Of a stretch of DNA of 64,000 nucleotides, positions 6,392 through 15,260 are shown piece by piece; within the stretch, counting starts at the first letter, position 1; each line of letters starts with the position of its first letter. The notes under the pieces were generated by a model, which was not told the DNA's origin, ran no database searches, and saw only the letters and a list, made by a program, of their open reading frames with translations. Source of the DNA: Thalassospira australica (GTDB taxonomy: Bacteria; Pseudomonadota; Alphaproteobacteria; Rhodospirillales; Thalassospiraceae); assembly GCF_000763295.1 (NCBI RefSeq), contig NZ_JRJE01000020.1, positions 248,001-312,000 of the forward strand. Direction: 5' to 3'. The position numbers and the translations under genes were made by a program.

Positions 6392-6618
6392 GCCAAATTT
6401 GCATGGCGAACAATGATGCCTAGCCGGATGTCTAGGCGGAATTTTTTTTCCAGCTTCGGGGATTATGCGAAAGATCAATCAATCAGGAATAGATTATCTC
6501 CCCGCCAACACGTATGATTGGCGCATCTTCATGTAACGGAAACAGGCGCCTTTTGGGGCTCCGACATCTGCGGAACGGGCGTTTTCCGAGTATACATGTC
6601 GGGGGGACGAGCGCGGCC

Positions 6619-7599
6619 ATGACCTATCTTCAAAATCACACGATATTGTCTTCGAACGACCTTGATGAGGTTCGCGTGTCGATCGAGGATATTGCATCAC
6701 GACACGATCTGGATATCAAAGAGCGCAATGCAGAGTTTAACGCCCGCATCGCAGCAGTGGCGTGTGATGACCTTAGCCTGATGCATGTTTCATTCGGAAA
6801 TTCGAGACTGACTGTAGACTCCTCGGAAGAGGATGACGATGGTTTGTTGCTTTATATTGTTACCTCCGGGACCGGCGTTGCGCAGCATTGTGGACAAGAA
6901 ATGGAATTCTTCTCCGATACAGGTTTCATGCGTGATTTGGCCCTGCCGATCCGGGCCACAGAAGATAACTTCAGCGCGTTTGCCCTTCGTTTATCGAAGG
7001 GTAAACTCAAAAACTATACCCGTTCTGTGGTTGGCGAAGATGTCGATTTAACCGGCCTGCGGTTCGATCCGATGATTGATCCCTCAACACCGGGTTGGGA
7101 CGTATTTCGCAATACCGTCCACTATGTCGCCGAGGCACTTGATGGTCCATTGCGTGAAATGCATAACCCGATCGTGACAACCCAGATGAAAGACGCCCTG
7201 GTCACACAATGCCTGAGCCTGTTACCCAACAGCTATCAGCACATGATAAACGGCCTCACTGTTACGGAAGTTGTGCCCTATTACGTTAAACGCGCACGTG
7301 ACTACATCCACGCCCATGCGGACAAAAAACTGGGGCTGGCCGAAATTGCGGCTGTGGCGGGATGCGGATATCGTGGACTGCAAAAAGGCTTCATGGATGC
7401 CTATGGCATTCCCCCCATGGCCTATTTGCGTGCCGTGCGTTTAAAGCGCGTCCGGGCTGTTTTGATAACAGAACCGGGCGGGAAAACCGTTTCTGAAATT
7501 GCCACACAATGGGGTTTTGGCCATATGGGCCGATTTGCAAAGGACTATCAGCGGGAATTCGGCGAGCTTCCGTCGGAAACAATCCGCAAATACCTTTAG
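6619..7599 (+). CDS. AraC-family transcriptional regulator
   Basis: A 326-residue protein. Residues 1-200 resemble the AraC-binding-like sensor domain found in XylS/FeaR-type regulators. Residues 225-326 form the double helix-turn-helix: 'LGLAEIAAVAGCGYRGLQKGF' and 'TVSEIATQWGFGHMGRFAKDY'. The ATG at 6619 is preceded by a G-rich GGGGGGA about 11 nt upstream; the frame is open to 6514 without a better start. It stands alone, so its target is not apparent. It could act on the large tectonin-secretin locus that starts 428 bp downstream, but that is only positional inference. Confidence 0.85.
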   Translation: MTYLQNHTILSSNDLDEVRVSIEDIASRHDLDIKERNAEFNARIAAVACDDLSLMHVSFGNSRLTVDSSEEDDDGLLLYIVTSGTGVAQHCGQEMEFFSDTGFMRDLALPIRATEDNFSAFALRLSKGKLKNYTRSVVGEDVDLTGLRFDPMIDPSTPGWDVFRNTVHYVAEALDGPLREMHNPIVTTQMKDALVTQCLSLLPNSYQHMINGLTVTEVVPYYVKRARDYIHAHADKKLGLAEIAAVAGCGYRGLQKGFMDAYGIPPMAYLRAVRLKRVRAVLITEPGGKTVSEIATQWGFGHMGRFAKDYQREFGELPSETIRKYL

Positions 7600-7816
7600 A
7601 AACACCACTCAGTATCCACAAAACGTCCAACGTATCCGGAAAGCGCAGCAAACGTACGTCGAAACCGAAATGCTTATTCCATTATCGGGGACAGTACTTA
7701 ATCCTTTGCGCCGGGGGTTGAGGCGTCTCTTGTTCATTTGAAAGTTTCAGCGATCTTGAAATGTCTTTGCTTTACGCAAGCCAAAGCATCAACAACGGCG
7801 TGTCCAGCTGAAAATT

Positions 7817-7846
7817 GCTGATCCATCAGCCCGGGTTTGAAAACCC
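7817..7846. promoter_or_regulatory. Two small adjacent inverted repeats
   Basis: GCTGAT-CC-ATCAGC (7817-7830) and GGGTTT-GA-AAACCC (7833-7846) are perfect 6-bp dyads separated by 2 bp. Alone each could be chance, but they are the first two of five dyads in 170 bp. Confidence 0.3.
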
Positions 7847-7870
7847 TTGGCTCTAGCAAGCTGATGATGT

Positions 7871-7892
7871 TCTGAACTGCAAGCAGTTCAGA
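7871..7892. promoter_or_regulatory. 22-bp near-perfect palindrome, possible regulator site
   Basis: Two perfect 10-bp arms (TCTGAACTGC and its reverse complement) are separated by AA, centred about 147 bp before the start of the 836-residue tectonin gene. Size and symmetry suit a dimeric activator or repressor such as a LuxR-type protein, though no regulator is identified. It could instead fold as an RNA hairpin. Confidence 0.45.
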
Positions 7893-7923
7893 CTTTCAGA
7901 GGTCTTCTCATCCCCAATGCAGT

Positions 7924-7988
7924 TCATAAGGCAGACCTTATGACATTCGCACGGTGACCTTGTTGCCTTGCCCGCAGGCAGGGGACAA
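7924..7988. promoter_or_regulatory. Two further inverted repeats before the tectonin gene
   Basis: TCATAAGG-CAGA-CCTTATGA (7924-7943) is a perfect 8-bp dyad. A longer imperfect hairpin around CCTTGCC-CGCA-GGCAGGG spans 7960-7988. They end 40 bp before the ATG at 8028, which has GAGGA about 9 nt upstream. They could form a structured 5' leader of the mRNA. Confidence 0.35.
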
Positions 7989-8027
7989 CAGTGACACAAC
8001 ACACATTGTTTGATTGAGGATTGATCG

Positions 8028-10538
8028 ATGGAAAGCTGTTTGAAGTCTGGCCACTTGCTTTGGCGGGCACTGCTTCTCTTAACTGTGTTTACCGCCATTA
8101 CGCTGGCAAGTTCATCACATGCCACAGCACAGCAGACACAAGCAGCATTTTCAAAACCTGGGCATGCCCTCTGCGGCGCAATGGATTTGCGCACAAACAC
8201 CCTTTTGGCTCCCTGTGGTTTTGCCAAGGCCACCAAAACAGGCAAAGCCGTTGGCAAATGCCCTAGGGGATCATTCTTTGATATCGGGACCTGGTCGTGT
8301 TTTTCATGCCCAAGCGGATATAACCGGACCGGTTTTGCCGTCGATACACCTATGGCCTGTTCAAAGACAGTGTCAGCCCAGTACAGATCGGCAAAACGTA
8401 TCGGTGCACATAAATCCTGCCCGTCCGGATCGTTCAAAGACCCGCGAAATGGCGGCGAATGCTGGTCGTGCCCGGCTGGCTTTGGCCGCACCTGGTCGCC
8501 TGTTGATGCATGGGATGCATGCGGAAAGTTTGGCGCATCAGCACGTCGGGCTGAATTCATTGATCGGGTATGCCCGGAAGGCGCGATTACTGACCCTAAT
8601 GGCAGTTGCTATACCTGTCCTGACGGGTTCCGCCGAACCGCCGCAGCCGTCACTGCCAACAATGCATGTTTCCGAAATGAAAGCTTGGTTCCTGCAGAAA
8701 AAACAGCGGCTTTGACCTGTAAAGCGGGGGAAATTTTCGATTTTGTCGATAGCGGCACATGCTGGACGTGCCCCGAAGCATCGGTGAGGTCCATTTTTGG
8801 TATCAAGTCGAAAGAAGCTTGTGAATATACGACCATGCGCTGGGAGGCTGCAAAGCGCACGCCGAACGGCCTTTTCGGGCTTCCGGGCGGGCACGAGATT
8901 GCCGCCGAGGTCATTGCTGAACGTACGCGAGTTGATGCGGCCAGTGAAAAATTCATCACACAATCGAAGATGAACAGAAGCGATGCCGAGGCATATCGGA
9001 TTGCAGCGTGGAAACAGATACATGATGCACCTGAAACATCCCCGGAGCTTAAAGGTGCCGTGTACGATTACATATTTGACGTGATCCAACGCGGCGCCAA
9101 GACAAAGCCTGAACGGGACATGGTCGCCTATATTGCAGCTTATGTGCAAGACACCCGCAAGTTATCAGCGTCCGAGATGAAACTTGTAATGGAAAGTTGG
9201 CAAAAAGGCCTGCAAGCCAAAAAGGCGTCACGCCCAACCGTCGGCACGAACGTATACGATACCGGCGTTGCACCGCCTGACCTTCGCTCAGCAATCAGTT
9301 CGATCATGCATATCGGTCCGGCAGCAGGTCTTACTTTGCTTTATATTGGGGGCAGCACGTTAGAAGCACTTTCCCCTGCATTCCAGCAGGTTGCCAGTCG
9401 CATAGCTCTTCAAATACTTCCGTATCGCTTCAAGGAAGTCACTCAAGGCGTTACTATCAGTAGCGCCGGGTTCGCGGGCGCTACTGTAGGTCCATTGATA
9501 GTCTTGAGCGTCTCATCTGTCATTGCATCAATCGCAACGGACATCGCGCTAGAACAGAACAAGCAGGAAGCGATCGTCAATGATGCACTCGCCGTCGCAC
9601 AACGTCCGGTCAATCTTGCCCGCCTGCTTAAAACTGACGATGGGCGGAACGAAGTTGCGACCAACTGGGCCCTGATGACCCAGGAGCCCATCAAGCCGAA
9701 TACTGCGCTTTGGGCAAGGTTGATGCAGAGCAAGAGCAAGAGCACGACCAATACTGTGCCAACGGTTGTTCTAGAGGGTGAAAAAGTGGTCGTAGGTGCG
9801 CCCGATATCCCGGTCATCCCGATGGCGCAGATTAATGCAATCACGACAACAACCACCGCCGGTCCAAATGGCAAAAATGTTTGGGAAAGAGTATCAGGCA
9901 AAGCCACTGACATTGCCGTAGGCACCGATGGCACGGCCTATGCGATTGGCCCGACCAAAGAAAACAGAAGTGGTTATCAGATATTCAAACGCGAGAGCAC
10001 AGCGAATGGCTGGACCAAACTGCGAGGGGCCGGATACCGTATTGCTGTTTCAGATACAACGGCCTGGGTTATCAATCTCCGTGGTCAGATATACTCCCTA
10101 AGCGGTTCCAAATGGCAAATTGTCCGGGGTCCTCGGGCACAGGATATCGGTGCCAGCGCCAAGGGCGTGTGGATCATCGATATCAAAGGGAAAATCCATA
10201 AACGTGAAGGCAATCGATGGAAAAACATTCCAGGTAGAGGTTACCGGATCGACATTGACCAGGACGGTCGCCCATGGGTGGTCGACAAGAACGGGGATAT
10301 GTGGGTGCATGGCAATGATCAAAAATGGCAAAAACTACCAGGTCAGGGCATTGACATCGCAGTAGACGTCCCCGGCCAGGCCAGAGCAATCGATAAGCTT
10401 GGCAACACATTTGTCTTTGACGGCCCCAAACGAAATTGGGTTGCGACTTCCCGGGAAAAGGATGCCCTGGCAATCGGTGCTGGCGGTGGTCAGGTCTGGC
10501 GCGTCACCAAGAACAATCAAATTTATCGGATGAAATAA
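8028..10538 (+). CDS. Large exported protein: Cys-rich repeats plus tectonin-type propeller
   Basis: An 836-residue protein. A signal peptide at about 11-34 ends in 'HATAQ'. Residues 78-265 hold four repeats of about 51 residues, each with four cysteines (78/91/94/111, 131/145/148/165, 182/194/197/214, 231/245/248/265), motif 'CWSCPAGFGRT'. They recall small disulfide modules of extracellular receptors. A helical region follows, with two hydrophobic stretches (424-443, 474-506) that may insert in or associate with a membrane. Residues 617-836 are about five tectonin/TECPR repeats ('DIAVGTDGTAYAIG', 'PWVVDKNGDMW') predicted to form a beta-propeller. This architecture is unknown to me. It is followed by a secretin lipoprotein and a second tectonin protein, so it is likely a surface or secreted part of the same apparatus. 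Confidence 0.85.
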   Translation: MESCLKSGHLLWRALLLLTVFTAITLASSSHATAQQTQAAFSKPGHALCGAMDLRTNTLLAPCGFAKATKTGKAVGKCPRGSFFDIGTWSCFSCPSGYNRTGFAVDTPMACSKTVSAQYRSAKRIGAHKSCPSGSFKDPRNGGECWSCPAGFGRTWSPVDAWDACGKFGASARRAEFIDRVCPEGAITDPNGSCYTCPDGFRRTAAAVTANNACFRNESLVPAEKTAALTCKAGEIFDFVDSGTCWTCPEASVRSIFGIKSKEACEYTTMRWEAAKRTPNGLFGLPGGHEIAAEVIAERTRVDAASEKFITQSKMNRSDAEAYRIAAWKQIHDAPETSPELKGAVYDYIFDVIQRGAKTKPERDMVAYIAAYVQDTRKLSASEMKLVMESWQKGLQAKKASRPTVGTNVYDTGVAPPDLRSAISSIMHIGPAAGLTLLYIGGSTLEALSPAFQQVASRIALQILPYRFKEVTQGVTISSAGFAGATVGPLIVLSVSSVIASIATDIALEQNKQEAIVNDALAVAQRPVNLARLLKTDDGRNEVATNWALMTQEPIKPNTALWARLMQSKSKSTTNTVPTVVLEGEKVVVGAPDIPVIPMAQINAITTTTTAGPNGKNVWERVSGKATDIAVGTDGTAYAIGPTKENRSGYQIFKRESTANGWTKLRGAGYRIAVSDTTAWVINLRGQIYSLSGSKWQIVRGPRAQDIGASAKGVWIIDIKGKIHKREGNRWKNIPGRGYRIDIDQDGRPWVVDKNGDMWVHGNDQKWQKLPGQGIDIAVDVPGQARAIDKLGNTFVFDGPKRNWVATSREKDALAIGAGGGQVWRVTKNNQIYRMK

Positions 10539-10547
10539 AAGGTCGCT

Positions 10548-10572
10548 GGTTGAGGCATATTTTGCCTCAACC
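10548..10572. terminator. Perfect intercistronic hairpin
   Basis: Arms of 10 bp (GGTTGAGGCA and its exact complement) with the 5-nt loop TATTT lie 9 bp after the stop of the 836-residue gene and 59 bp before the secretin gene. No T-tract follows, so it is more likely an mRNA 3'-end stabiliser or partial attenuator than a full terminator. Confidence 0.5.
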
Positions 10573-10631
10573 CGTCCGCATGCCGAATTTATATATTTTG
10601 CGTGAACTAAAAAGACAAGAATGGGGATTTG

Positions 10632-12548
10632 ATGCGGCTGTTTATGACGTCTCTTCGCAGCACGGTTGCGGTTTGTGCGTTGGTGGCTCTGGCGGGCTGC
10701 CAAACACTGTCTTTGAGCACCACACCGACCAACACAGACAATCAGCTTGTTGTAAACTCTGCAGTTCAAGCTGATGCTGTTTCAGAATTGGTCCGAGAGA
10801 GCACGCGGGCCCTCGAAGCCCAAAAAATGGATGACGCATCACGCTTGATCAATCTGGCCTTGAAGCTTGATGTCTCCAACCCGGATTTGCAGTTTCTCAA
10901 TGGCCTGACCTACCACCTGATGGGGGTTCAGGGAGACGCCAGCAAGTTTGATCTGGCCGAGCAAGGTTACAAACAGGCTCTTAAATTCGATCCAGGCAAC
11001 TTGTCGGCGACGTATCAGTTGGGCCTCTTGTATATGGATCAGCGGCGCTATGGTCTGGCGCAGGGGTATTTCGCAGCGGTCGCCCTTCATCGTGATGACG
11101 ACCCGTCTGTTCTGTATAACCTAGCCTCTGCATCCTATTACGCCAGGGACCCAAGAACCTCGGAAGCCGCCCTGAGACGATTACTGGCAGTCGCACCAGA
11201 GGCAAAGCAACAACCCGAAATCCTCAAGGCAACGGCGTTGTCCCTTGCGGCAATGGATGATCGCGAAGGGGCATCAGCATTTGTATCTGCCTATCGCGAT
11301 GCGGTTATGGGGCCGGAAAGCATCGCGTATCTTGAACGTCGTGTGCAAGGGTGGCAGTCTTTTTACGACAGCGATGCCAAAGTCCTTATGGCCCAATATG
11401 GAAATGATCCGTATGGCAGCGATCCTTACGGGTCAAGCACCCCATACGGTCAAAGCAACCCATATGGATCTGATCCCTATGGGTCAGCACCAGATCCATA
11501 TAGTGCTCCGCAAGCGGGGGCGTATGGTGCAACGGACCCGATGCAGCAGGGCTTTGCCGATACAAGTATGGTCGTCGTTGATGTTGTCCTGATCGGTACA
11601 CAGGAAGACGTTCGCAATTCGCGTGGGATCAACCTTCTGAACGGTTTGCAGTTGCAATTTGGTGACCCGCTGACCGGGACGGCAGGTTTCGGCTATGGAT
11701 CAACCCGAACAAAGGATTACCTGAATACCGGGTTGGAACAAAGCACCCAGACAATTACCCGGGCGATCAGCATTCCTGCTGTCACATATTCATTGAACAT
11801 TGCCAATTCGGCCGACGCCAACAATCAGGTTCTGGCCAAACCAAGTCTGGTCGCCCAGGCAGGGCAAACGTCGGAGTTTTTCTCGGGCACGGAAATTCTT
11901 GCTGCGGCAGTCTCCGGCGGTAATGGCGACAGCGTTTCGGTGCAAAAGGAAGTTGGCGTCAAGCTGGCGGTTACGCCGGAAATTCTGCCCGATGACATGA
12001 TCCGTTTGCACGTGGTTGCAGAACGCACCTTCCTGACCGATCCTTCCAATTCGGTTGTGTTTGAATTCCGCCTCGACACGACCAAGACCAATGTCAATTC
12101 GACCGTCACCATGAAGTTCGGCGAAACCCTTGTTCTGGGTGGTTTGAGCGAACGCGAAACATCGAAATCCGCCGATGGTGTACCGGGGTTGATGGATATT
12201 CCGATTATCAATCTGTTGTTCTCACAGCGTGTTGAACGTCAATTCGAACGGTCTGTCCTGATCCTGATGACACCGCGGCGTCCGCATTACACCCGCAGAG
12301 CACAAGCTGATCGTGATATCGCGATCGATGAAATGTCGGATCTGGAACGCGATATTGAACGTCTTCAACATCGTCACAAGGACTGGTTCACCCCGCGCGC
12401 GACTTTCAATGAAGTCATTGAAAAGCTGCAAGGACGCGAATTCTTTGAAGAATTCAGAACCGGAGACGTGAAAGTTCAAGATTGGCAAAATGACGCCAGC
12501 AACCAGCAACATATTGCGATGGTGCGGGACCGATTGCTTGGCAGTTAG
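10632..12548 (+). CDS. TPR-secretin lipoprotein
   Basis: A 638-residue protein. The lipoprotein signal peptide ends at 'LVALAGC' (Cys23). Residues 50-240 are helical with TPR-like repeats ('LDVSNPDLQFLNGLTYHL', 'GNLSATYQLGLLYMDQRRYG'). Residues 256-300 are a low-complexity PYG/DPYGS linker. Residues 310-550 are the C-terminal secretin domain, with its signature 'VPGLMDIPIINLLFSQR' (517-533). A charged helical tail follows. Secretins form gated outer-membrane channels of type II/III and pilus systems. Here the usual N0/N1 ring domains are replaced by TPRs. The ATG at 10632 is preferred over the adjoining TTG; GGGG lies about 6 nt upstream. The gene sits between two tectonin-propeller genes, and its tail ends 37 bp before the next start, which suggests one transcription unit. 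Confidence 0.9.
   Translation: MRLFMTSLRSTVAVCALVALAGCQTLSLSTTPTNTDNQLVVNSAVQADAVSELVRESTRALEAQKMDDASRLINLALKLDVSNPDLQFLNGLTYHLMGVQGDASKFDLAEQGYKQALKFDPGNLSATYQLGLLYMDQRRYGLAQGYFAAVALHRDDDPSVLYNLASASYYARDPRTSEAALRRLLAVAPEAKQQPEILKATALSLAAMDDREGASAFVSAYRDAVMGPESIAYLERRVQGWQSFYDSDAKVLMAQYGNDPYGSDPYGSSTPYGQSNPYGSDPYGSAPDPYSAPQAGAYGATDPMQQGFADTSMVVVDVVLIGTQEDVRNSRGINLLNGLQLQFGDPLTGTAGFGYGSTRTKDYLNTGLEQSTQTITRAISIPAVTYSLNIANSADANNQVLAKPSLVAQAGQTSEFFSGTEILAAAVSGGNGDSVSVQKEVGVKLAVTPEILPDDMIRLHVVAERTFLTDPSNSVVFEFRLDTTKTNVNSTVTMKFGETLVLGGLSERETSKSADGVPGLMDIPIINLLFSQRVERQFERSVLILMTPRRPHYTRRAQADRDIAIDEMSDLERDIERLQHRHKDWFTPRATFNEVIEKLQGREFFEEFRTGDVKVQDWQNDASNQQHIAMVRDRLLGS
11397..11531 (+). repeat. In-frame PYG/DPYGS low-complexity repeat
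   Basis: Within the secretin gene, about 45 codons encode repeated DPYGS and PYG units ('GNDPYGSDPYGSSTPYG') joining the TPR part to the secretin domain. The DNA is a degenerate tandem repeat prone to length variation between strains. Confidence 0.7.
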
Positions 12549-12585
12549 CATTTTGTTTTCAAAAACTGTGATGCGAGGTCATCTA

Positions 12586-15186
12586 ATGACGCAGCTGATC
12601 ATGCGGGTTTGTCTTGTTCTGTTTTGTATCGCATTTGCGACAATTCATCCGACACATGGCGTGTATGCACAAGATAATCGCGCCTCTCCAAACTGGACCC
12701 GCCTGCCCGGTACGGCCGTTGACATATCAATCAACAGTGACGGGCAGGCCTACGTTGTGGCCCCGGATGGCACCCCTTGGCGCTGGGATGCCGAGGAACA
12801 ACGTTGGCGTAAAATGTCGGGTAACTTTGTCCGGATTTCCGCTGCCGAAGGAAACCGACCCTGGGCGATCAACCATGAAGGCGTGGTTTATCGCTATAAC
12901 GGGCTATGGTGGGAAAACAAGGATACCGACGTTGCCGATGTTGCTGCTGATACACAAGGAAATGTCTATATCGCCAAAGTCAGCGGCGAAATCAAAAAAT
13001 GGTACCCGTTGCGCAGCGAATGGCAGCCGATTGACGGGATAGCTTATCGCATCGCACTGGACATGGCCGGCCATCCCTGGGCTGTGACCCGGGATGGACG
13101 CGTTCGTTCCTTTGACGGCAAGGACTGGATCACGATGCCCGGGCGTGCGACCGATATCGCCATTGGCGGGAACAATGCTGTTGTGATTGCCGATGCCGAA
13201 GGCCAGATCAGAATTTGGTCTCCTGCCCGACATAGTTGGCGACTTGTCGCCGGGGTTGCCGGGGTAGCAGCCCCTGCTGCCACCCCCGATGGCGCGCCAT
13301 GGGCCGTCACCGGAGGGGGCGCTATCATGGCAACAACCTTGCTGGTCGCACCGGAAAAGATCAAAACCGAAAAAGGCCAGGCACCGGAAAGTCACGCACC
13401 GCAGGCGGTCGCCCCTGTCGAAAGCGCCCCTCCTGCGATTGCTTCGGGCATCACAGCCCCGCCATTGCCAGCAACAGCGGCCCCTTCACCCCCGCCTGCC
13501 CGGGCGACAACGTCAACGGCACCGACGCTTGTCACAAATGATGCGACCGCCTCGCCTGTTACACCCGATACAGGCACAAGCAACACCCAAGCCAGCAAAA
13601 CCGTCGCGCCAGCAACCGGCAACGACCCGGCACTTGATCCATCCACTGTGACAACGACCGAGGACATTGTCTTTGTCAACACACGCCAGAACGCGTCGGC
13701 TTTGGCAATCGGCCGGGATGGGAGTGTATTTGGTCTTAATGCCGCGGGCGGTGTCCTGCGTTGGTCAAACAGCCGTAAACGGTTTGACGATTTCCCGGGC
13801 ACAGTGGTGCGTCTGGCCGTTGATTCCGATGGTAACCCGTGGGGTATTTCAACGCTGGGCCGGGTATTTCGCCATACAGGAAATCTGTGGAAACAAATCC
13901 CAAATGCAACCGGCTCAGACATTGCCATTGGCGGGGATGGGTCGGTTGTCATCACCGATGCCAACGGCACTTTATCCAAACTTAATGACGCCATGACGCG
14001 GTTTGATCGCATTCCTGGGCAGGGTATTTTGGTCGCGGTTGCGCCGGATGGAACTCCATGGACAATTCGTTCCGATAGTCTGGTGCAGCGATGCGACACA
14101 TCACCTTGCGAGGTTTTCGCACAAAAAGCCAAAAGCATATCCATCGGCCCGGATGGCAGCGTTTATGTGGTATCAGAAAATCACTTCCTGATGCGCCTGG
14201 GCACTGATGGCAAAACCTTTGAAATTGTTCAAATACCGGGCCACAACGTGCAAAGTGTCGCGGTCGGTCCCAATGGTTTCCCTTGGGTGGTGGCAGACAA
14301 TACGATTGTCCTGGCTTCCAAATTCTTTGAACGTGACGAAATGGTTGACCGCCTAATTGCAGCCTCAACCGTAGGGGACACCACCGGAAGTGGCGACATC
14401 GCCCCCGTGGTGGATGTTGCATCTGACAGCACGTTTACGTTTTCAAAAAACATAACTTTTGAAACATTCACAACAGACCTCAATACGCTTGATGCCATGA
14501 CCGTCGGACAAAATGATGAGTTCTATGTATATGGCACCCCGCTAGACCAGGGATCAAAACGGCTATTGAAGTTCAACACCACGTCAAAGAAGCTCGACGA
14601 AGTTTCCCTGTCTTTTAACCAGGACCTCTCGACGTTCGATGTTGCAGATGATGACAGCATCTGGACAAACGGAGATAGTTCGAATTCGATTTACAAGCTG
14701 TCCTCAACAGGAGCTATCCAGCGCACCTATTCCGTCACATCAGGTAACATCCGAAACCTGTCGATTGGCTCGGATGGCACGGTTTATGTCGTCGTCGACA
14801 ACCGGCTTTATCGCCTGAAACCCGGCACAAACGCCTTCACCAAATTCAGCAATGATGATGTTTACAAGGTTGCGATTGGTCGTGCAGGCGATCTGTGGAT
14901 TGCAGACAGCAGTGACATTGTACAGCAATTTACCGGCACACGGTTCGAAAACCGCCCCAAGGGTCAAAGTATTAACATCAATGATATCGGTGCCGGAACA
15001 GATGGCAGTATCTATGTCACCGTCTTTGAAAACAGTGAATACATTTTAAAGAAATGGAATGCCACAAACGGTTCATTTGACAAGGTCAATAACGTCAATG
15101 CCGACCAAGTTGACGTGTTATCGGATGGCCGCCCCTGGATCACGGATACAAGCTCTGACACCGACATTAAACGCGCCAAGGATTAG
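12586..15186 (+). CDS. Large exported tectonin-type beta-propeller protein
   Basis: An 866-residue protein. Signal peptide 1-29 ends in 'GVYAQ'. Three blocks of tectonin/TECPR repeats follow: residues 35-250, 358-580 and about 615-866. The repeat core is W..(I/M)PG...DIAIG.DG..(W/Y)V.(T/N)..G, for example 'GRATDIAIGGNNAVVIADAEG'-like units. Residues 255-355 are a Pro/Ala/Thr-rich unstructured linker. Such propellers bind lipopolysaccharide, glycans or proteins in other organisms (TECPR and tachylectin relatives), so a ligand-binding surface protein is plausible. The ATG at 12586 has GAGG 8 nt upstream; upstream in-frame codons overlap the secretin gene and lack a signal peptide. It is the last gene of the locus, closed by a terminator at 15220-15260. 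Confidence 0.88.
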   Translation: MTQLIMRVCLVLFCIAFATIHPTHGVYAQDNRASPNWTRLPGTAVDISINSDGQAYVVAPDGTPWRWDAEEQRWRKMSGNFVRISAAEGNRPWAINHEGVVYRYNGLWWENKDTDVADVAADTQGNVYIAKVSGEIKKWYPLRSEWQPIDGIAYRIALDMAGHPWAVTRDGRVRSFDGKDWITMPGRATDIAIGGNNAVVIADAEGQIRIWSPARHSWRLVAGVAGVAAPAATPDGAPWAVTGGGAIMATTLLVAPEKIKTEKGQAPESHAPQAVAPVESAPPAIASGITAPPLPATAAPSPPPARATTSTAPTLVTNDATASPVTPDTGTSNTQASKTVAPATGNDPALDPSTVTTTEDIVFVNTRQNASALAIGRDGSVFGLNAAGGVLRWSNSRKRFDDFPGTVVRLAVDSDGNPWGISTLGRVFRHTGNLWKQIPNATGSDIAIGGDGSVVITDANGTLSKLNDAMTRFDRIPGQGILVAVAPDGTPWTIRSDSLVQRCDTSPCEVFAQKAKSISIGPDGSVYVVSENHFLMRLGTDGKTFEIVQIPGHNVQSVAVGPNGFPWVVADNTIVLASKFFERDEMVDRLIAASTVGDTTGSGDIAPVVDVASDSTFTFSKNITFETFTTDLNTLDAMTVGQNDEFYVYGTPLDQGSKRLLKFNTTSKKLDEVSLSFNQDLSTFDVADDDSIWTNGDSSNSIYKLSSTGAIQRTYSVTSGNIRNLSIGSDGTVYVVVDNRLYRLKPGTNAFTKFSNDDVYKVAIGRAGDLWIADSSDIVQQFTGTRFENRPKGQSININDIGAGTDGSIYVTVFENSEYILKKWNATNGSFDKVNNVNADQVDVLSDGRPWITDTSSDTDIKRAKD

Positions 15187-15219
15187 ATTTCATTCGCGTC
15201 CCAACCCATCGTGAAATGG

Positions 15220-15260
15220 AAAACGCCCTGACCGAAATTACCGGCCAAGGCGTTTTTTTT
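15220..15260 (+). terminator. Terminator of the tectonin-secretin locus
   Basis: Arms AAAACGCC and GGCGTTTT with an inner CCGG-containing stem, followed by eight T, about 35 bp after the last stop. A clear transcription end for the three-gene unit. Confidence 0.85.

What the first reader, a model, noticed from the sequence alone, without database searches (positions are those of the whole stretch)
7817..15260. Three-gene locus: two giant exported tectonin-propeller proteins around a TPR-secretin lipoprotein
An 836- and an 866-residue exported protein, both rich in tectonin/TECPR beta-propeller repeats, bracket a secretin lipoprotein in one unit closed by a terminator. Secretins normally act with inner-membrane ATPases and pseudopilins, none of which are here. 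The locus could be a secretion or surface-display system whose propellers bind glycans, LPS or other cells, with the secretin as their outer-membrane port. I know no described system with this composition.
Basis: partly seen in the sequence, partly recalled or inferred. Interest (0 to 1): 0.8.

Follow-up and report, generated by a model that had tools for sequence, protein, structure and literature searches.

The report
Lectin operon with its own secretin
A marine bacterium carries a movable, switchable set of genes that seems to pair sugar-binding exported proteins with their own outer-membrane pore, without the motor proteins such pores normally need, so it may be an unrecognised way of putting proteins on the cell surface.

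Summary
The three genes are real and form a discrete module in a Thalassospira genome: AraC regulator, protein A (836 aa), TPR-secretin lipoprotein (638 aa), tectonin protein (866 aa), terminator. In 29 Thalassospira genomes, A and the tectonin protein occur in the same 16 genomes as close relatives of this secretin and in none of the other 13. A module-free relative has 120 bp at the same site. The own genome has three secretins, all with TPR matches, and no PF00437 ATPase or PF00482 platform protein; PF00482 is missing from all 17 secretin-bearing Thalassospira. The secretin has a TPR domain where canonical secretins have STN/Secretin_N domains. Correction: protein A is tectonin only in its last quarter; the rest is Cys-rich repeats and a hydrophobic helical region. 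A is mosaic between strains: helical region and terminal lectin (tectonin or ricin-B) are exchanged separately while the secretin stays conserved. Best reading: a stand-alone secretin port for Sec-exported lectins, AraC-controlled. Export is not shown; glycan import or a purely periplasmic role remain open.

The parts
6514..7599 (+). AraC-family regulator (AraC_binding_2 + HTH_18), first gene of the module
   Evidence: Pfam; co-oriented upstream in the 14 intact loci counted
7613..7645 (+). Direct repeat TATCC-N2-AAA(A/G)CG, two copies 20 bp apart, candidate AraC operator
   Evidence: ATCC and CG columns of both copies invariant in 8 of 8 aligned upstream regions; function inferred
8028..10538 (+). 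Protein A, 836 aa, predicted exported (signal peptide about aa 1-35)
   Evidence: cleavage site read from the sequence, no predictor run
8172..8822 (+). Protein A Cys-rich repeats, aa 49-265, conserved part
   Evidence: 18 Cys, all 18 columns invariant in the 16-row alignment A5
8865..9722 (+). Protein A helical region aa 280-565, in part hydrophobic, variable between strains
   Evidence: AlphaFold helices, low confidence in 400-520; hydropathy and allele exchange
9876..10532 (+). Protein A tectonin propeller aa 617-835
   Evidence: Pfam; AlphaFold block means 71-94; Foldseek 5fsb/5fsc TMt 0.85-0.88
10632..12548 (+). TPR-secretin lipoprotein, 638 aa, predicted lipidation at Cys23 (LAGC-Q)
10776..11399 (+). 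TPR domain aa 49-256 in the place of secretin N-domains
   Evidence: Pfam; AlphaFold mostly 77-89; Foldseek MamA TMt 0.85-0.88
11568..12278 (+). Secretin C-domain aa 313-549
   Evidence: Pfam and NCBIfam; Foldseek
12586..15186 (+). Tectonin protein, 866 aa, predicted exported; propeller repeats before and after a Pro/Ala-rich linker (about aa 255-355)
   Evidence: Pfam; PDB sequence hits; division into three propellers is my reading
15169..15183 (+). Conserved C-terminal tail KRAKD
   Evidence: R-A/G-K/R at the end in 23 of 25 rows (the other two are cut or broken; three of the 23 lack the last D/N; one gene, L058/L102, appears twice); role inferred
15220..15260 (+). Terminator hairpin and T-run, facing the convergent pirin gene

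Best explanation
The locus is a self-contained, inducible module for exporting or displaying lectins. Shown by sequence: an AraC gene, two predicted Sec-exported lectin-bearing proteins (A and the tectonin protein) and a lipoprotein that joins a TPR domain to a secretin channel domain; the set is conserved, present or absent together, and found in genomes without the T2SS/T4P/Tad platform protein. Inferred: A and the tectonin protein are exported by Sec and fold in the periplasm; the TPR domain of the secretin receives one or both (possibly through the conserved basic C-terminus of the tectonin protein) and, being part of the lipoprotein, also does the targeting work that separate TPR pilotins do elsewhere; the secretin ring lets them reach the surface, where the propellers bind glycans. 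Because the N-terminal domains that link canonical secretins to the inner membrane are not detected, it would work without an inner-membrane motor. The exchangeable central and lectin parts of A suggest selection for variety in what is recognised or attacked.
For: Exact co-occurrence of secretin, A and tectonin protein in 16 of 29 Thalassospira genomes, with neither A nor tectonin protein in the other 13; secretin and tectonin gene adjacent in 18 of the 19 clear named loci; a second full copy on contig C22 and a full set in a genome of another order (G133). No PF00437 and no PF00482 in the genome, controls positive in 14 and 13 of 14; PF00482 absent from 17 of 17 secretin-bearing Thalassospira. 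No STN or Secretin_N domain listed in 11 TPR-secretins scanned: P0002 (E up to 1), P0007 and one L107 protein (up to 0.01) and 8 (up to 0.1), while both other secretins, L065 and L066, show such domains. Weak PilW pilotin match over residues 13-196 (E 1.1e-8, below its cut-off). Tectonin fold; ricin-B end instead in L053, L064 and L105. Allele exchange in A.
Against: No secretion, localisation or interaction was tested. No energy source is identified, and I recall no secretin shown to export folded protein without an inner-membrane partner. Outside Thalassospira the TPR-secretin mostly lacks a recognised lectin partner: of 21 loci read, 2 have a neighbour with a lectin domain over the Pfam cut-off (L105, L119), 1 a marginal one (L107) and 5 a pentapeptide-repeat partner (L107 among them); in the other 14 I recognised none by eye, but their neighbours were not scanned. 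Of 20 such genomes 15 have PF00482 elsewhere, so their secretin might use it. The secretin barrel model is poor. Unknown inner-membrane partners outside the two tested families cannot be excluded. PF00437 matches occur in 10 of the 17 secretin-bearing Thalassospira.
Confidence: 0.5

Rival explanations
1. Uptake rather than export: the TPR-secretin is an outer-membrane import pore for glycans or other large ligands, the lectin propellers are periplasmic or pore-associated binders, and the AraC regulator responds to the ligand.
For: AraC regulation is common for sugar use (recalled). Elsewhere the TPR-secretin lies beside solute-binding proteins: NMT1_3 (PF16868) in L106, L109 and L110, and DctM and DctP genes stand next to the module in L105.
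Against: No transporter or glycan-degrading gene belongs to the Thalassospira module as read here; protein A shows strong allele exchange, which fits exposure to the outside better.
Confidence: 0.2
2. Periplasmic envelope complex: A, the tectonin protein and the TPR-secretin stay inside and bind LPS or other envelope glycans, the secretin being a scaffold, not a channel.
For: Tectonins bind O-methylated glycans, which are known in bacteria among others (PMC5238581, passages seen); no motor for export is encoded.
Against: The secretin C-domain is kept in all 12 aligned relatives, which a mere scaffold would not need. Exchange of lectin type is unexpected for a fixed envelope target.
Confidence: 0.17
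3. Antagonism: protein A is a secreted, strain-variable attack protein; the lectin end selects the target cell and the hydrophobic helical region acts on its membrane, the rest being its export kit.
For: Residues 395-500 of A are 27 % identical between two strains whose secretins are 99 % identical, and 97 % identical between two strains whose secretins are 82 % identical; 16 of 19 protein A sequences have at least one strongly hydrophobic segment there; AraC plus A duplicated in L050.
Against: The window has no room for an immunity gene between A and the secretin (93 nt); A matches no PADLOC, PHROG or NCBIfam family and in Pfam only tectonin over the cut-off; the helical region is modelled with low confidence. 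The same pattern fits a self/non-self surface receptor.
Confidence: 0.12

Closest known systems
Tad system secretin RcpA with its TPR pilotin TadD (PMC10499894, passages seen)
   Same: Secretin served by a lipidated TPR protein; RcpA is a sequence and fold hit
   Different: TadD and RcpA are separate proteins, RcpA keeps a VirB9-like N-domain and belongs to a pilus machine; here TPR and secretin are one chain and no PF00437/PF00482 gene was found
Type II secretion and type IV pilus secretins (GspD, PilQ)
   Same: Secretin C-domain; best PDB sequence hits
   Different: No STN/Secretin_N domain found, no PF00437 or PF00482 in the genome
Secretin of Stutzerimonas stutzeri K1 (L065)
   Same: Lipobox, weak TPR matches (E 0.0065, below cut-off) plus secretin domain
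   Different: Keeps STN and Secretin_N, has a weak Cohesin match, 26 % identity, and lies near an ORF with a pilin-like N-terminus (my reading)
Tectonin 2 of Laccaria bicolor (5fsb, 5fsc)
   Same: Propeller of protein A: target TM-score 0.85-0.88, 26 % identity
   Different: Stand-alone fungal defence lectin; here one module of a larger exported bacterial protein
Filamentous phage pIV secretin
   Same: phrog_1012 match E 2e-21
   Different: No relatives of the secretin or of A confirmed in viral contigs

Membership tests
Secretin superfamily (PF00263) | Secretin C-domain over the curated cut-off | tested here: met
   108.4 bits against cut-off 27.5
T2SS / T4P / Tad system | Assembly ATPase PF00437 in the genome | tested here: not met
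   0 matches in own genome, all 47 candidates scored, controls 14 of 14
T2SS / T4P / Tad system | Platform protein PF00482 in the genome | tested here: not met
   0 in own genome and 0 of 17 secretin-bearing Thalassospira
T2SS / T4P secretin | STN/Secretin_N periplasmic N-domains | tested here: not met
   not listed at E up to 1 in P0002; such domains listed in L065 and L066
T2SS / T4P | Pseudopilins or prepilin peptidase | not tested
   not searched genome-wide
T3SS | Export apparatus with SctC secretin | not tested
   only the secretin domain was searched; the three genomic secretins are TPR type
Pilotin of PilW type | Equivalog score for PilW | tested here: not met
   TIGR02521 35 bits, cut-off 154; resemblance only
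Tectonin lectins (PF19193) | Tectonin domain over cut-off in A and in the 866-aa protein | tested here: met
   66.9 and 97.3 bits, cut-off 30
Tectonin lectins | Glycan binding | not testable with these tools
   needs a binding assay; binding residues were not compared
Lipoprotein with outer-membrane sorting signal | Lipobox with a residue other than Asp after the Cys | tested here: met
   LAGC-Q in P0002; a lipobox pattern in 18 of 19 secretins of L046-L064; location itself not tested

The most novel reading that the evidence does not exclude
A distinct, motor-free secretion class: a TPR-secretin that pilots itself and receives folded cargo directly in its TPR groove, spread across Alphaproteobacteria with different beta-repeat cargos (tectonin propellers, ricin-B proteins, pentapeptide-repeat helices), in Thalassospira carrying a strain-variable recognition or attack protein.
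Probability: 0.3. Interest if true: 0.9.

Novelty: new variant of a known kind. Interest (0 to 1): 0.68.

Why it matters
Secretins are understood as the outer end of machines driven from the inner membrane. A genome with three secretins and no PF00437 or PF00482 gene makes it directly testable whether a secretin can move folded proteins by itself. The link to variable lectins would also give marine bacteria a new route to selective attachment or antagonism. The searched open-access papers gave no listing that looked like this gene set (ten searches; I saw titles and abstract starts, and passages of two papers).

Tried and rejected
Phage origin: pIV-like profile match only; no relatives of the secretin or of A confirmed in viral contigs. 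Plasmid origin: no match over 60 % identity of any of the three proteins in plasmids; the best-covered secretin match, 28.8 % over 86 %, is a TPR protein of an Asticcacaulis plasmid. Defence system: no PADLOC hit. An unseen T2SS or pilus elsewhere in the genome: not found for two core families. Fold of the middle of protein A: model too weak; the 50 best Foldseek rows named no relative that I could use for it; the second aligner was unavailable. PF00437 hits in other Thalassospira (19 of 29; at most 46 candidates per genome were scored there, so up to 19 went unscored in a genome) mostly cover part of the model and come without PF00482 in the 17 secretin-bearing genomes; I read them as conjugation-type ATPases, untested. 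The promoter scan found no more than shuffles. Three weak extra matches (E 1e-4 to 7e-4: two TPR-length stretches and one reading across stops) were not counted. The Fisher value for co-occurrence, 1.5e-8, ignores relatedness and is only illustrative.

Full report
What is there. Three genes on the + strand, 8028-10538, 10632-12548 and 12586-15186, are separated by 93 and 37 nt and followed by a hairpin with a T-run (not listed by the consensus scan). An AraC-family gene at 6514-7599 precedes them. The 428-nt gap after it holds a direct repeat at 7613-7645, two copies 20 bp apart, whose ATCC and CG columns are invariant in 8 of 8 aligned relatives; I take it as the AraC operator. The genome holding the window (G000, 4.26 Mb, 31 contigs, completeness 100) is unnamed.

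The proteins. The middle protein has a lipobox, TPR repeats (about 49-256) and a secretin C-domain (313-549). NCBIfam places the channel part near PilQ and GspD and the N-terminal part near the TPR pilotin PilW, all below cut-off. Pfam lists no STN or Secretin_N domain in it at E up to 1, nor in P0007 or one L107 protein at up to 0.01, nor in the 8 TPR-secretins (P0004 among them) at up to 0.1, whereas the two other secretins show such domains. In GspD the N-terminal N0 domain links to the inner-membrane-tethered GspC, and a similar role is thought likely for PilP in pili (PMC10499894, passages seen); that Pfam STN/Secretin_N stand for N0-N3 is recalled. AlphaFold models the TPR part well and the channel poorly (mean pLDDT 59.8, 12 sequences); Foldseek still ranks secretins first. 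The 866-aa protein has 6 tectonin stretches and was not modelled. Protein A has 18 conserved Cys in residues 49-265, a helical part, and a tectonin propeller at 617-835 matching L. bicolor tectonin 2 (TMt 0.85-0.88; model pLDDT 63.5 overall).

Conservation as a unit. P0002 relatives occur in 17 of 29 Thalassospira genomes. Sixteen have the close type (at least 62 % there); the seventeenth, G002, has only the 35 % type. The tectonin protein and protein A occur in exactly those 16 and in none of the other 13. The named-genome scan gave 24 loci, of which 19 (L046-L064) carry a clear relative (38 % or more) and 5 (L065-L069) only weak matches. Of the 19, 14 have AraC-A-secretin-tectonin in that order; L052 has the same order with A and the tectonin gene in pieces; L061 has A-secretin-tectonin without a co-oriented AraC; L058 has AraC-secretin-tectonin-A; L055 lacks A; L060 has the secretin only. 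In the module-free genome G015 (L143) isocitrate dehydrogenase and pirin, which flank the module in the window, are 120 bp apart. None of the other 15 stretches fetched beside pirin shows the module; isocitrate dehydrogenase was recognised in 8 of them, with other genes between in most (in the remaining 7 my ORF choice did not show it).

Second copies in the same genome. Contig C22 carries AraC, TPR-secretin (62 % identical), tectonin protein (39 %) and a 1167-aa protein A (24 %). It also carries a third TPR-secretin (35 %) with an AraC gene beside it, near a 4109-aa frame whose end has three ricin-B and three F5/8 C-type stretches; G002 has relatives of that last set. These three are the only PF00263 matches in the genome.

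No motor found. The genome has no PF00437 match (47 candidates, all scored) and no PF00482 match, with controls positive in 14 and 13 of 14. Of 37 genomes with TPR-secretins 22 lack PF00482: all 17 Thalassospira and 5 of 20 others. PF00437 is found in 19 of 29 Thalassospira; 7 of the 17 secretin-bearing ones lack it. Pseudopilins and T3SS were not tested.

Wider family. With the 12-sequence alignment, TPR-secretins reach E 1e-30 in 21 of 385 alphaproteobacterial genomes including the own one, 17 of 276 genera; some hits are split between frames or cross a stop. I read 21 loci from 19 of the 20 other genomes; G263 was not fetched. One (G133, L105) has the full module, with a ricin-B end on A. 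Five have a pentapeptide-repeat partner (L106, L107 and L110 by Pfam; L108 and L109 by reading the repeats). L119 has a 2384-aa ricin-B protein and L107 also an 1129-aa protein with a sub-threshold ricin match. In the other 14 I recognised no partner by eye; those neighbours were not scanned against Pfam. Thus the secretin is wider than the lectin module. A beta-proteobacterial MAG (L060) also has secretin plus pentapeptide protein.

Mosaic protein A. L047 and L059 (T. profundimaris WP0211 and T. tepidiphila) share 99 % of the secretin, 96 % of the tectonin protein, 94 % of the Cys region and 98 % of the terminal propeller, but 27 % of residues 395-500 of A. L057 and L059 share 97 % of that stretch but 82 % of the secretin. 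So pieces of A move between lineages independently. Of 19 protein A sequences over 600 aa examined, 16 have at least one strongly hydrophobic segment in the central part; L053, L054 and L058 have none over the threshold. The terminal lectin is ricin-B in L053, L064 and L105 (L054 is 96 % identical to L053 there), absent in L061 (no Pfam match), and tectonin in P0001 and P0006 and, by alignment, in the others that follow them.

Mechanism. Shown: composition, conservation as a unit, absence of two core motor families, no detectable N-domains, lectin folds, allele exchange. Inferred: Sec export, folding in the periplasm, docking on the TPR part, passage through the ring, glycan binding outside, AraC induction. 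The C-terminal R-A/G-K/R tail of the tectonin protein, present in 23 of 25 rows (two rows cut or broken, one gene listed twice), is a candidate docking signal, but it also lies in a blade strand and may be structural. The strongest counter-reading is uptake, because NMT1_3 or DctP/DctM genes lie beside the TPR-secretin or the module in L105, L106, L109 and L110.

Verdict. A real, conserved gene set that I found described in none of the paper listings seen; membership in T2SS, T4P or Tad fails on tested features, while it may still work like a secretin exporter. Export is not demonstrated.

Noticed in passing
L020:329-12658 (contig C22 of the own genome): A 4109-aa frame with F5/8 C and ricin-B lectin stretches at its end, near a third TPR-secretin and an AraC gene; relatives in G002 (L101).
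   Followed up: partly
L106, L107, L108, L109, L110, L060: TPR-secretin next to an exported-looking pentapeptide-repeat protein with a Cys-x2-Cys-x-Leu-Arg-Tyr-type start; an NMT1_3 solute-binding gene confirmed beside it in L106, L109 and L110.
   Followed up: partly
L050:1566-9879: Tandem duplication of AraC plus protein A in front of one secretin gene; the two A copies are 29 % identical in residues 395-500.
   Followed up: no
L158:2137-3612 (Streptomyces sp. NBC_01343 plasmid): The Cys-rich repeat of protein A occurs in a different hypothetical protein of an actinomycete (36.6 % identity).
   Followed up: partly
L065:8864-11131: A Stutzerimonas secretin with weak TPR and Cohesin matches plus STN and Secretin_N, near an ORF with a pilin-like N-terminus.
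   Followed up: no
L055:5789-9922: In a MAG labelled Methylophaga, a 1377-aa protein without a Pfam lectin match stands in the place of protein A.
   Followed up: partly
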